A stretch of DNA of 64,000 nucleotides from Chryseobacterium sp. KLBC 52. GTDB taxonomy: Bacteria; Bacteroidota; Bacteroidia; Flavobacteriales; Weeksellaceae. Positions 55,886 through 59,440 of the stretch are shown here, piece after piece. The stretch is from positions 124,001-188,000 of the forward strand of contig NZ_QDFZ01000002.1 in the NCBI RefSeq assembly GCF_003347605.1, read 5' to 3'. Below the pieces are notes generated by a model, which made no database searches, was not told the origin of the DNA, and was given only the letters and a program-made list of their open reading frames with translations. Position numbers and translations under genes: made by a program. Numbering within the stretch: the stretch's first letter is position 1; each line of letters starts with the position of its first letter.

Positions 55886-57511
55886 ATGGCAAAAGAAATA
55901 AAATTCGATATTGAATCAAGAGACGCTCTAAAGAGAGGAGTAGATGCATTGGCTAATGCAGTAAAAGTAACTTTAGGTCCTAAAGGAAGAAACGTAGTGA
56001 TCGAAAAATCTTTCGGTGCTCCACACGTAACTAAGGATGGGGTGTCTGTTGCAAAAGAAATCGAACTTGAAGACAGAGTAGAAAATATGGGAGCTCAGAT
56101 GGTAAAAGAAGTGGCTTCCAAAACTAATGATATCGCAGGAGACGGTACTACTACCGCTACTGTATTGGCACAGGCTATCGTAAGAGAAGGTCTTAAGAAC
56201 GTAGCGGCAGGTGCTAACCCAATGGATCTTAAAAGAGGGATCGACAAAGCGGTAACTGCTGTTGTTGAAAACCTTAAAACACAGTCTCAGGCTGTGGGAG
56301 ATTCTACAGATAAAGTAAAGCAAGTTGCTTCTGTATCTGCTAACAATGACGAAACTATCGGTGCTTTAATCGCTGAAGCTTTCGGAAAAGTTGGAAAAGA
56401 AGGTGTAATCACTGTAGAAGAAGCTAAAGGTATCGATACAACGGTAGATGTTGTGGAAGGTATGCAGTTCGACAGAGGGTACCAGTCACCATACTTCGTG
56501 ACTAACCCTGAGAAAATGTTAGCTGAACTTGAAAACCCATATATCCTTTTAGTAGAGAAGAAAATTTCTTCAATGAAAGAATTGTTACCGGTTCTTGAGC
56601 CAATTGCACAAGGTGGTAAGTCTCTATTAATCATCTCTGAAGAAGTTGAAGGTGAAGCTTTAGCTACTTTGGTAGTGAACAAACTAAGAGGTTCTCTTAA
56701 AATTGCTGCTGTAAAAGCTCCGGGATTCGGAGACAGAAGAAAAGCAATGTTAGAAGATATCGCTATCCTTACAGGTGGACAGGTGATTTCTGAAGAGCAA
56801 GGTTTCACAATGGAAAACATCTCTTTAGATATGCTTGGAACTGCTGAGAAAGTAACGATCGACAAAGACAACACAACTGTTGTAAACGGTGGTGGTGACG
56901 AAGCGAAAATTAAAGGAAGAGTTGCTCAGATCAAAGCTCAGATGGAAACTACAACTTCTGACTACGACAGAGAAAAACTTCAGGAAAGATTAGCTAAGTT
57001 AGCTGGTGGTGTTGCTGTACTTTACGTAGGTGCTGCTTCTGAAGTAGAAATGAAAGAGAAAAAAGACAGAGTAGATGATGCGCTACACGCTACAAGAGCT
57101 GCTGTAGAAGAAGGTATCGTTGCTGGTGGTGGTGTTGCTTTAGTGAGAGCAATTTCTTCACTAAACGAACTTACTGGTGCTAATGCTGACGAAAACACTG
57201 GGATCAAAATCGTGAAAAGAGCGATCGAAGAGCCATTAAGACAAATCGTTGCTAACGCAGGTGGTGAAGGTTCTGTAATTGTTGCTAAAGTAGCAGAAGG
57301 ATCAGGAGACTTCGGATACAATGCGAAAACTGACGAGTATGTTCAAATGCTTGAAGCAGGAATCATTGACCCAACTAAAGTAACAAGAGTTGCCCTTGAA
57401 AATGCAGCTTCTGTATCTGGAATGCTTTTAACAACTGAATGTGTTATCACTGAAGTGAAGAGCGCTGAACCAGCTATGCCAATGGGTGGTGGAATGCCAG
57501 GAATGATGTAA
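55886..57511 (+). CDS. groEL: Chaperonin GroEL
   Basis: A 541-residue ATP-driven folding chaperonin forming double seven-membered rings. All family blocks are present, including TLGPKGRNVVIEKSFGAP, the ATP site GDGTTTATVLAQAI, EEGIVAGGGVALVRA, and the Gly/Met-rich tail ending MPMGGGMPGMM. Intact and of normal length. Its last 170 or so bases plus terminator recur downstream in two copies. Confidence 0.98.
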   Translation: MAKEIKFDIESRDALKRGVDALANAVKVTLGPKGRNVVIEKSFGAPHVTKDGVSVAKEIELEDRVENMGAQMVKEVASKTNDIAGDGTTTATVLAQAIVREGLKNVAAGANPMDLKRGIDKAVTAVVENLKTQSQAVGDSTDKVKQVASVSANNDETIGALIAEAFGKVGKEGVITVEEAKGIDTTVDVVEGMQFDRGYQSPYFVTNPEKMLAELENPYILLVEKKISSMKELLPVLEPIAQGGKSLLIISEEVEGEALATLVVNKLRGSLKIAAVKAPGFGDRRKAMLEDIAILTGGQVISEEQGFTMENISLDMLGTAEKVTIDKDNTTVVNGGGDEAKIKGRVAQIKAQMETTTSDYDREKLQERLAKLAGGVAVLYVGAASEVEMKEKKDRVDDALHATRAAVEEGIVAGGGVALVRAISSLNELTGANADENTGIKIVKRAIEEPLRQIVANAGGEGSVIVAKVAEGSGDFGYNAKTDEYVQMLEAGIIDPTKVTRVALENAASVSGMLLTTECVITEVKSAEPAMPMGGGMPGMM

Positions 57512-57540
57512 CAGCGTGTCGCTGAGACAATTTAATATAT

Positions 57541-57573
57541 AAACCGTTCTGCTTTTGTAGGGCGGTTTTTTTG
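57541..57573 (+). terminator. Terminator of groEL
   Basis: AAACCG and CGGTTT arms with a partly paired loop (CTGC... GTAGGG) and a T-run, 30 bases past the stop. The same terminator recurs at 59390-59418 and, decayed, near 58097. Confidence 0.8.
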
Positions 57574-57646
57574 TTCTTATGGTTTCCCGTAAGAAAGAGA
57601 AATTATGAAAGCTTAAATTGCAGAAAATATTAATTAAAATAACTTT

Positions 57647-58009
57647 ATGGAAATTCAATTTACTAGTAACGAGCAATTAGAAGAATTCATTCAACAAAAA
57701 AATTTAATAAACAAAAACTCTATAACTCATTTTAAAGCTCTAATTTCAATCAAAACCTCCAAAAATAAAATTTCAAATGAAGAAATGGAAATATTTATTT
57801 CGTTCGAAAATTATAATAGCCTAGGACGTGTAACTATAATGAATAGCGAATTAGATCCTTTATTATATCCAACTGTATTTGAAGCTAAATGGCAAAAAAT
57901 GGAATATATCGATGATGAATATTTATTAATATCTGATATTCACAAAAAAAATCCAAATATTGGAAAATATACTGTAAAAATTATCCCTTTATCGAAGTTA
58001 AAAGAATAA
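57647..58009 (+). CDS. Hypothetical protein, unknown family
   Basis: A 120-residue, probably soluble protein with no signal peptide. It starts MEIQFTSNEQLEEFIQQKNL and has a mixed charge pattern with IFISFENYNSLGRVTIMN in the middle and YTVKIIPLSKLKE at the end. I recognise no domain. Base composition is far more AT-rich than groEL. It stands between the real groEL end and the decayed copy of that end, which suggests it was inserted. An immunity-type protein is one possibility, but nothing shows this. Confidence 0.6.
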   Translation: MEIQFTSNEQLEEFIQQKNLINKNSITHFKALISIKTSKNKISNEEMEIFISFENYNSLGRVTIMNSELDPLLYPTVFEAKWQKMEYIDDEYLLISDIHKKNPNIGKYTVKIIPLSKLKE

Positions 58010-58029
58010 TTTTTCTAATCTATTGTTAG

Positions 58030-58123
58030 AGGCCTGAACCATGGTGGAATACTAGGAATAATGTAGTAGCGTAAGCTAAGACAAATTAATATACTAACCG
58101 TTCTACTTTTTGTGAGACGCTTC
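58030..58123 (+). repeat. Degenerate copy of groEL 3' end and terminator
   Basis: GGTGGAAT, then AGGAATAATGTAGTAGCG, a GACAAATTAATATA stretch and ACCGTTCT-like words line up with the last codons of groEL and its trailer. A deletion of about 14 bases and many substitutions are present. It shares TAGTAGCG with the long copy at 59186, where true groEL has TAACAGCG, so these two copies are closer to each other. Confidence 0.65.
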
Positions 58124-58175
58124 TATTTTCAAAGCTAAAACTATAAAATAAATGAGAACAATAAAAAACTAAATT

Positions 58176-58628
58176 ATGAAAATTGAATTTATTTACCAAT
58201 TGATAAGTGGAATTTTCATTTTGTATTTCGTTATTATTTTTCTTTTCTATTATCGAAAAATAAATCAAAAAAAACAAATTGATAATTTAAAGACTTATAC
58301 TTTTGACTTTTGCACCAAGGACGATACCAATTATGAAAAATTTATGATTAACTATTTTGATCATAAGGGTTGGAAAACAACAGATGACGCTACATTTATG
58401 ATTTTAGCTAATTTTGATAAAATTTCGATAGCACTTAAACATAGAGTATTTCACGAAGAAATTATTTATGATTATTATGCCAAGTATTTTATTCAATTTT
58501 ATAGTGAGTTTCAATTTTTTATAATTCAAAGAAGAGAAATGACAGCTAATCCAGATCTTTTTATTGAGTATGAAAAATTGGTCAGACGTTGGAAAAATAA
58601 TTTCAAAAATTTCAAAATTGATTTATAA
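58176..58628 (+). CDS. Hypothetical protein with N-terminal membrane helix
   Basis: A 150-residue protein. One hydrophobic segment (ISGIFILYFVIIFLFYY, about residues 11-27) is followed by a basic stretch and a soluble domain rich in Phe, Tyr and Lys, ending RRWKNNFKNFKIDL. No family recognised. The stop overlaps the start of the next gene, so the two form an operon. Very AT-rich. The pair lies between two copies of the groEL tail, as an inserted cassette would. Confidence 0.6.
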   Translation: MKIEFIYQLISGIFILYFVIIFLFYYRKINQKKQIDNLKTYTFDFCTKDDTNYEKFMINYFDHKGWKTTDDATFMILANFDKISIALKHRVFHEEIIYDYYAKYFIQFYSEFQFFIIQRREMTANPDLFIEYEKLVRRWKNNFKNFKIDL

Positions 58629-59068
58629 TGGAACATGAAATTTTTGAAACAATAGCTAATTTTTGTAATGCAAAAAATTATCCTCTAATTTACAATAGAA
58701 TTCTCTTGCATAAATTTTATGAAGATTATAAAAAAGTAATTAATGATCATACTATAAAAGAAGGCTCAGATCCGACAAATGACACCTTGAAGGGATTTAA
58801 AAGTACACTATTAAATGATATGACATTAACATCAAACATCAAATTGGCTGAGGACGAACTAAAAAATTATTCAAAAGAAGAAATCAACAAATTTGAAAGG
58901 AAACAATCTACAAGAGCATTTTGGATAAGCGTTCTATCAGGAGTAATCGCATCTATAATTTATACTTTATTATTAATAATCTTTTTTTATCTAGGTAAAA
59001 ATCAGCTCAGCTCATGGTTAAATGACTTAAATTCAAATACCTCCCAAGAGACAAAAAAGATCGAATAG
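58628..59068 (+). CDS. Hypothetical protein with C-terminal membrane helix
   Basis: A 146-residue protein with a soluble helical N-terminal part (about residues 1-95). A strong transmembrane segment near residues 98-121 (VLSGVIASIIYTLLLIIFFYL) and a short polar tail follow. Its topology is the mirror image of its operon partner, which has the helix at the N-terminus, so the two may form a membrane complex. No family recognised. Confidence 0.6.
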   Translation: MEHEIFETIANFCNAKNYPLIYNRILLHKFYEDYKKVINDHTIKEGSDPTNDTLKGFKSTLLNDMTLTSNIKLAEDELKNYSKEEINKFERKQSTRAFWISVLSGVIASIIYTLLLIIFFYLGKNQLSSWLNDLNSNTSQETKKIE

Positions 59069-59116
59069 TGAAAAAACTATAATACTAGTGAAAATAAATT
59101 ATATCACCCTAGCTAC

Positions 59117-59136
59117 TCAAAGTCTCCTGACTTTGA
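59117..59136. repeat. Short palindrome, family copy 1
   Basis: Perfect arms TCAAAGTC and GACTTTGA around TCCT. Related copies are at 61143, 62195 and 63481. Confidence 0.6.
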
Positions 59137-59185
59137 ATAAATAATACAAATCAATTTGAAGTAAAAAGATTTTGAAGAGCAATGA

Positions 59186-59440
59186 TATGTTCCCGTACTT
59201 GAAAATGGTATCATTGCCCAAACTAAAGTAACAAGAGTTGCCCTTGAAAACGCAGCTTCCGTATCTGGAATGCTTCTTACAACCGAATGTATTATCACTG
59301 AAATAAAGAGTGCTGAACCAGCTATGCCAATGGATGGTGGAATGCCAGGAATGATGTAGTAGCGAGTCGCTGAGACAAATTTAATATATAAACCGTTCTG
59401 CTTGTAGGGCGGTTTTCTTGTTTTATGGTTTCCCGTAAGG
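59186..59440 (+). pseudogene. Partial copy of groEL 3' end with terminator
   Basis: About 255 bases aligning with 57338-57594. They run from the last roughly 60 codons of groEL, still in frame (TKVTRVALENAASVSGMLLT, then IITEIKSAEPAMPM, DGGMPGMM, stop TAG), through the trailer and terminator to the CCCGTAAG word. By eye about nine bases in ten are the same, and many of the differences are synonymous (AAT/AAC, TCT/TCC, ACT/ACC) or conservative V to I. That pattern points to descent from another functional groEL rather than simple decay of a local duplicate. The 5' part fades out near TATGTTC. It has no start and is not expressed as a protein. Confidence 0.8.
59390..59418 (+). terminator. Second copy of the groEL terminator
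   Basis: AAACCG and CGGTTT arms with a shortened loop (CTGCTTGTAGGG) and TTTTCTT. It lies after the groEL remnant and may end transcription of the two unknown genes upstream. The roughly 240 bases that follow, to 59659, are AT-rich with no gene seen. Confidence 0.7.

What the first reader, a model, noticed from the sequence alone, without database searches (positions are those of the whole stretch)
57338..59440. groEL 3' end is repeated twice downstream and brackets unknown genes
The tail and terminator of groEL appear three times: the intact gene end (to 57594), a decayed copy at 58030-58123 and a long copy at 59186-59440. One unknown gene lies between the first two, and a two-gene operon between the second and third. 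The long copy keeps the reading frame, and many of its differences from groEL are synonymous or conservative, which fits descent from a functional groEL of another strain. This is what repeated insertion or homologous recombination at a conserved gene end would leave, with the groEL tail acting like an attachment or recombination site. I know of no described element using groEL this way.
Basis: partly seen in the sequence, partly recalled or inferred. Interest (0 to 1): 0.78.

Follow-up and report, generated by a model that had tools for sequence, protein, structure and literature searches.

The report
Gene cassettes bounded by groEL tails
In Chryseobacterium bacteria, variable genes sit one after another behind the chaperonin gene groEL, each cassette ending in a copied piece of the groEL tail with its transcription stop, and these tails likely act as the matching ends through which the genes are swapped between species.

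Summary
The window is Chryseobacterium. Of 120 genomes read behind groEL (window included), 79 carry at least one displaced piece of the groEL coding tail, 143 in all; three control segments from inside groEL gave none. Copies run in groEL's direction, mostly stop where the groEL terminator ends, and start at scattered points, 141 of 143 within 210 bases of the stop. They bound cassettes of about 1 kb with unrelated genes. One cassette is about 99% identical in four genomes whose groEL cores are 88-92% identical, and like cassettes sit at different array positions. An anchor gene lies about 2.0 kb behind groEL in tail-free genomes and 2.5 kb behind the last tail in array genomes, so cassettes were inserted between groEL and its native flank. 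With the same own-genome test, 73 of 101 Chryseobacterium loci have coding copies against 0 of 40 sister-genus loci. The window genome has two tyrosine recombinase genes, both far from the array. Best reading: an integrase-free cassette array exchanged by homologous recombination in groEL tails. How a gene first gains its tail is unproven.

The parts
55886..57511 (+). groEL, intact, 541 aa; head of the array
   Evidence: groEL core 96.6-96.8% identical to nearest relatives
57338..57572 (+). groEL tail as homologous to the long copy: last 174 coding bases and terminator
57541..57568 (+). groEL terminator hairpin; cassettes join right after its T run
   Evidence: fold z-score -4.42
57579..57593 (+). 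native-flank motif ATGGTTTCCCGTAAG behind groEL
   Evidence: read; such motifs follow a tail end in 78 of 83 places
57647..58009 (+). cassette 1 cargo: 120-aa protein of unknown function
   Evidence: no Pfam or PADLOC hit; likes named from Chryseobacterium gleum (96%), Flavobacterium and Empedobacter
58021..58123 (+). decayed groEL tail, end of cassette 1
   Evidence: hairpin lost
58176..58628 (+). cassette 2 cargo, first gene: 150-aa DUF4760 protein
   Evidence: PF15956, E 6.7e-14; found in no other of 171 genus genomes at E 1e-6
58628..59068 (+). cassette 2 cargo, second gene: 146-aa protein
   Evidence: no Pfam family over its cut-off
59118..59135 (.). short palindrome CAAAGTCTCCTGACTTTG near the cargo 3' end
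   Evidence: read; like palindromes precede 31 of 143 tails
59186..59419 (+). long groEL tail (from -174) with stop and terminator, end of cassette 2
59425..59439 (+). native-flank motif behind the last tail
   Evidence: read
62777..63518 (+). gene region that lies 0.5 kb behind groEL in G138 (no tails there) but 5.3 kb behind it here
   Evidence: 94% match

Best explanation
The stretch behind groEL is a cassette array in which each cassette carries mostly one gene and ends in a 5'-truncated groEL tail with its terminator, and cassettes are likely exchanged between cells by homologous recombination in these tails. Shown: the array form, a left joint at the end of the terminator, the shared direction, insertion between groEL and its native flank, near-identical cassettes in different species at different positions, and tails that reassort against cargo. 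Inferred: the recombination is RecA-type and acts on taken-up DNA. Inferred and less certain: a new gene would gain its tail when incoming DNA pairs with groEL on one side and is joined by chance to the groEL tail on the other (homology-facilitated illegitimate recombination). The tail would serve as homology, as a terminator for each cassette, and as a way of inserting without breaking groEL.
For: 79 of 120 genomes with coding tail copies, 0 with three internal control segments. Anchor HTH gene: 2.0 kb behind groEL in 14 tail-free genomes, 5.6 kb in 35 array genomes but 2.5 kb behind the last tail; rho 0.81 with tail number. 30 groups of like cassettes, 120 of 211 members, at differing positions. 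One cassette about 99% alike over about 1.07 kb in four genomes with groEL cores 88.4-91.8% alike; its protein found in 5 of 171 genomes, 5 of 5 right behind a groEL tail. Cargo-sharing pairs have different left and right tails and unrelated or barely alignable sequence after the tail in 16 of 16 pairs, while 21 pairs share tails with unrelated cargo: breakpoints lie in the tails. Two tyrosine recombinase genes in G000 and two in G129, none within 80 kb of the array. Hotspots exchanged through flanking core genes are known (PMC5635113, passages).
Against: groEL's own 3' end shows no more phylogenetic conflict than the rest of groEL, and pairs sharing the first cassette have no more alike groEL tails (mean difference -0.27 against +0.63 for all pairs, p 0.10), although insertion at groEL by crossover should bring donor tail in. 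Right tails are co-transferred only slightly (90% against 86%, 16 non-independent pairs). The limit near -208 (2 of 64 cargo families beyond -215) is unexplained. No uptake or recombination was observed; the comEC-type gene found also rings in 10 of 14 control genomes, and Flavobacterium johnsoniae was reported not competent (PMC7965970, start of abstract).
Confidence: 0.55

Rival explanations
1. A dedicated, unrecognised site-specific system acts in trans: the end of the groEL terminator is the entry site and each cassette's tail is its recombination site, as attI and attC are in integrons.
For: The left joint is precise, and groEL's own tail is not replaced when a cassette arrives. Most copies end within +54 to +70 (94 of 136). 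A hard upstream limit near -208.
Against: Cassettes sharing 99% identical cargo do not share their tails, so cargo plus tail does not move as one unit. Tail starts scatter. In G000 and G129 the only tyrosine recombinases are two genes of about 300 aa (XerC/XerD-like by my reading, recalled), and resolvase-type genes lie on other contigs.
Confidence: 0.25
2. Remains of integrative elements (phage, ICE or Tn7-like) that used the groEL end as attachment site and lost their integration genes.
For: Duplicated gene ends are usual marks of such elements; G029 has about 45 kb between two tails; one virus-labelled contig carries a cassette end beside a phage-like region.
Against: Typical cassettes are about 1 kb with one gene; no recombinase among 30 cassette proteins (of 128 families) scanned; phage and plasmid collections gave only 7 and 5 records with matches below 80% identity; no tyrosine recombinase hit in the virus-labelled contig.
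Confidence: 0.1
3. An old simple tandem duplication of the groEL end.
For: All copies are direct repeats next to groEL.
Against: Cargo between tails is unrelated and differs between genomes, is shared across species, and the native flank is displaced with tail number; internal groEL never duplicated.
Confidence: 0.02
4. Retrocopies of the groEL messenger 3' end, 5' truncated and ending at the terminator.
For: Fixed 3' end with variable 5' start is the form of retrocopies.
Confidence: 0.03

Closest known systems
Minimal mobile elements of Neisseria (definition seen in passages of PMC3082526)
   Same: Whole-gene cassettes that differ between strains at a fixed place by conserved genes, without mobility genes, exchanged by homologous recombination.
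   Different: There the cassette lies between two conserved genes and one replaces another. Here cassettes stack in tandem, each ending in a copy of the tail of one conserved gene.
Accessory-gene hotspots without mobile elements, exchanged through flanking core genes (PMC5635113, abstract and passages)
   Same: Rapid gene turnover, no recognisable integrase, homology supplied by core genes.
   Different: Homology lies inside the array in repeated groEL tails, so single cassettes can be gained or moved; groEL itself shows no raised conflict.
Integron cassette arrays (recalled)
   Same: Arrays of mostly single genes in one direction, each with a common 3' element, inserted at a fixed place.
   Different: The 3' element is a gene tail with terminator, not a folded attC site; no integrase gene by the array was found; cargo moves without its tail.
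Homology-facilitated illegitimate recombination (PMC3240628, start of abstract in a listing)
   Same: Homology on one side and a chance joint on the other would give a fixed left joint and scattered right joints.
   Different: It is a process seen in experiments, not a named genomic array; its use here is inferred.

Membership tests
Integron | Integron integrase gene beside the array | tested here: not met
   PF00589: two hits in G000 (C7, and C12 about 86 kb past groEL) and two in G129 (C9, and C16 about 108 kb past groEL). Other genomes searched hold 7-15 hits, not placed against the array one by one.
Integron | Cassette moves as gene plus its own 3' recombination site | tested here: not met
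   Cargo 99% alike, right tails 86-93% alike in the four-genome group.
Integron | Array of gene cassettes in one direction with a common 3' element | tested here: met
   ORFs of 80 aa or more 209 to 15 on groEL's strand, cassettes ending in groEL tails.
Minimal mobile element | Different whole-gene cassettes at one conserved place in different genomes | tested here: met
   (across species; strains of one species were not available).
Minimal mobile element | Incorporation by homologous recombination | tested here: inconclusive
   Mosaic tails and reassortment for; no raised conflict in groEL itself against.
Minimal mobile element | Two conserved genes bound the cassette | tested here: inconclusive
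   groEL on the left; an HTH or 174-aa gene in 50 and 53 of 101 loci on the right, with 6 and 10 coding tails beyond them.
Integrative element at a gene 3' end | Own integrase and one constant attachment core | tested here: not met
   Scattered tail starts; no recombinase in the 30 cassette and 8 window proteins scanned.
Homology-facilitated illegitimate recombination | Homology at one end and a non-homologous joint at the other end of incoming DNA | tested here: inconclusive
   Fixed left and scattered right joints fit; pre-join cargo sequence is unknown, so microhomology could not be scored.
Natural transformation | Demonstrated DNA uptake in this genus | not testable with these tools
   Only a ComEC-type gene was found, which is not specific.

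The most novel reading that the evidence does not exclude
Chryseobacterium runs an integron-like gene-capture array without an integrase: the 3' end of groEL, about the last 205 coding bases plus the terminator, is the common recombination end of the cassettes, so that a housekeeping gene has become both docking site and mobile end of a shared accessory gene pool.
Probability: 0.5. Interest if true: 0.85.

Novelty: new variant of a known kind. Interest (0 to 1): 0.72.

Why it matters
Many accessory-gene hotspots lack mobile elements, and how they grow is an open question. Here each gain appears to leave an oriented groEL tail behind, so the history of an integrase-free route of gene capture can be read and tested. 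Some cassettes carry likely defence genes (SLATT, PtuA/AriA-like ATPase, Mrr-type and type II restriction enzymes) beside many unknowns (12 of 30 scanned proteins had no Pfam family at E 0.01), so the place behind groEL is a good site to look for new small defence or immunity genes.

Tried and rejected
Simple tandem duplication: rejected by unrelated, shuffled and horizontally shared cargo. Phage or plasmid carriage: 7 of 50,697 phage and 5 of 72,556 plasmid records match, all below 80% identity and none over 80% of the query. Cargo as native neighbours of groEL in other genera: 8 of 120 comparison loci (40 sister-genus, 80 named records; two had under 600 bases behind groEL) hold a like of any cassette ORF behind groEL, 5 of them sister-genus, 3 Chryseobacterium; no sister-genus hit lies closer than 2.5 kb. 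Replacement of groEL's own end: no sign. Sharp preferred joints: clustering only marginal (p 0.065). Palindromes as joining sequence: near 31 of 143 tails, absent at 112. A search of the window's DUF4760 gene in 171 genomes found only the window itself, so it says nothing on movement. Promoter-like sites in the array are at background (16 against 15.4). In one search the hit 101-150 in every row is an overlap of query and subject, not a copy; one search recounts without it. L076 (G128) was dropped because its groEL frame is broken. In one search, 36 of 95 longer copies were left out because they do not align without gaps at 80%. With about 118 foreign groELs against one own, a better foreign match is partly expected by chance.

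Sampling: one search covered 173 genomes of the genus; one search listed only part of the 171 with groEL. I fetched 120 besides the window, mostly nearest first by groEL likeness, passing over G141, G017 and G137 whose contigs end soon after groEL, so distant relatives are under-sampled. ORF clusters and the anchor test rest on the first 101 loci.
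Full report
WHAT WAS CHECKED. The window holds groES, a small ORF and groEL, followed by the finding. The long copy matches the groEL end at 88% over 196 gapless bases and reads in frame to the stop. The middle copy keeps the last codons, the stop and a broken terminator.

A GENUS-WIDE PATTERN. I took the stretch behind groEL from 120 of them plus the window; one with a broken groEL frame was dropped. Of the remaining 120, 79 carry at least one copy with 40 or more coding bases, 143 in all, 1 to 6 per genome. 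Three internal groEL segments of the same length gave 0 copies. Looser matches, terminator-only pieces included, number 227 in 92 of 120 genomes, with 7 minus-strand places. A like-for-like test of each genome against its own groEL end gives 73 of 101 Chryseobacterium loci with a coding copy, 0 of 40 sister-genus loci and 0 of 78 named records; 7 of the 40 sister-genus loci have small non-coding pieces, mostly of the terminator. Four of the 78 named records are close Chryseobacterium loci (L174-L177) and also have none.

ANATOMY. In the own-genome test 94 of 136 coding copies end between +54 and +70 after the stop codon, 18 before and 24 beyond. Against pooled groEL ends 125 of 143 stop at +56 to +66, the query ending at +66. 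The 5' starts scatter: 141 of 143 lie within -210 to -40. Collapsed to 64 cargo families, 2 lie beyond -215 and 13 of the other 62 fall at -207 to -193; the clustering is marginal (p 0.065). Cargo is a median 984 bases. Of 143 cassettes 88 hold one ORF of 80 aa or more and 18 none; ORFs lie 209 to 15 on groEL's strand, and the 209 fall into 128 families. One cassette type is only 70-91 bases long and palindromic, with 12 members in 9 genomes.

CARGO. Thirty family representatives of 128 were scanned with Pfam and ten with PADLOC. Found are an alpha/beta hydrolase, Kelch and T9SS-tail proteins, several DUFs, a phosphotransferase-family protein, a SLATT protein (RTasSLATT in PADLOC), an AAA ATPase like PtuA/AriA, an Mrr-type nuclease, a PIN protein and a type II restriction enzyme; 12 of 30 have no Pfam family at E 0.01. 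The window's own cargo is a 120-aa unknown, and a DUF4760 gene with a 146-aa partner.

INSERTION, NOT DUPLICATION. An HTH gene and a 174-aa gene recur on the far side. In tail-free genomes the HTH gene lies a median 2.0 kb behind groEL (n 14); in array genomes 5.6 kb (n 35), but 2.5 kb behind the last tail, not different from tail-free (p 0.62); its position rises with tail number (rho 0.81). The 174-aa gene agrees (10 and 39 genomes; 3.0, 6.0 and 3.3 kb; p 0.81; rho 0.80). Six and ten coding tails lie beyond these anchors, so they are not absolute ends. A native-flank motif follows a groEL or tail terminator in 78 of 83 places. In G138 (groEL core 96.6% identical) the gene region at window 62777-63518 lies 0.5 kb behind groEL instead of 5.3 kb.

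CASSETTES MOVE BETWEEN SPECIES. Thirty groups of like cassettes hold 120 of 211. In 39 of 190 like-cargo pairs the cargo is more alike than the groEL core, in 12 by over 3 points; one cassette is about 99% alike in four genomes with groEL cores 88.4-91.8% alike. Its protein occurs in 5 of 171 genomes, each time right behind a groEL tail; in G029 that is a displaced tail about 49 kb from groEL. A hydrolase family has 33 hits at 75% identity or more: 29 lie within 17 kb behind groEL or its tail by the coordinates, one (G017) is flanked by tail pieces on another contig, and three (G012, G062, G129) lie elsewhere. The 31 hits at 54-60% are mostly elsewhere. A foreign groEL beats the own one in 51 of 59 gapless longer copies (rank 1 in 8), but by a small margin (median 2.5 points, 5 or more in 7 of 59). 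The frame to the stop is open in 45 of 59. Of 452 codon differences 266 are non-synonymous, so tails decay after insertion. Tail length falls with distance from groEL (rho -0.28, n 213); the window, with its decayed copy nearer, is an exception.

HOW IT LIKELY WORKS. In the 99% group the high identity stops at the terminator on the left and soon after the tail begins on the right; each genome has its own right tail. In 16 pairs sharing cargo at 95% or more (six of them from that one group) right tails are a median 90% alike, against 86% for unrelated cassettes, and what follows is unrelated or barely alignable in 16 of 16; 21 pairs share tails at 96% or more with unrelated cargo. Tails and cargo thus reassort, as recombination within repeated tails would do. 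A ComEC-type gene is present, though it also rings in 10 of 14 control genomes. Riemerella, a relative, is naturally competent (PMC8383284, start of abstract), but Flavobacterium johnsoniae was not (PMC7965970, start of abstract). Against the reading, groEL's own end shows no extra phylogenetic conflict, and sharing the first cassette does not raise groEL-tail likeness. Exchange may act mostly among cassette tails with breakpoints close to the cargo, or a precise enzyme may be at work. Tyrosine recombinases number two in G000 and in G129, away from the array, and 7 to 15 in four other genomes searched. Resolvase-type genes number one in G000 and two in G129, on other contigs. The first joining of a gene to a tail is inferred, not seen.

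NOVELTY. Paper searches for groEL with hotspots, cassettes or islands in Chryseobacterium or in general listed nothing that describes this; subscription papers are mostly not held. The nearest kinds are minimal mobile elements (PMC3082526, passages) and hotspots exchanged through flanking core genes (PMC5635113, passages). Stacking on copies of a housekeeping gene's tail and terminator sets this apart.

Noticed in passing
window 55460-55816: A 118-aa ORF lies between groES and groEL; it looks to me (recalled) like a four-helix protein of the kind found in rRNA intervening sequences.
   Followed up: no
window 59660-61120: A 486-aa AAA ATPase follows the last tail; PADLOC gives partial IetA-like hits (E about 2e-9), Pfam AAA. 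Its role is unknown.
   Followed up: partly
window 64000 onward, G000 C12 (joined coordinates 64197-66192): Two neighbouring Kelch-like genes are 77% alike over 917 bases; the stretch behind groEL stays on one strand for about 20 kb.
   Followed up: partly
G029 C4:23595-76261: groEL tails at 25972, 71377, 74702 and 76081 leave about 45 kb between the first two copies; content not read.
   Followed up: no
L276 (IMG/VR contig): A virus-labelled contig begins with a cassette ORF and a groEL-tail end, then a repressor-like and other phage-like genes: likely a prophage with host flank.
   Followed up: partly
L045, L053, L059, L072, L084, L098 and others: Cassettes of only 70-91 bases consisting of the palindrome CCTTGTCAAGGTTTAAAACCTTGACAAGG and a groEL tail (12 in 9 genomes); no ORF, role unexplained.
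   Followed up: partly
groEL positions -207 to -193 in the genus: Tail copies pile up at an upstream limit near -208 (13 of 62 cargo families); no explanation found.
   Followed up: partly
L050:3444-4433: One cassette carries a phosphotransferase-family (PF01636) gene; function not tested.
   Followed up: no
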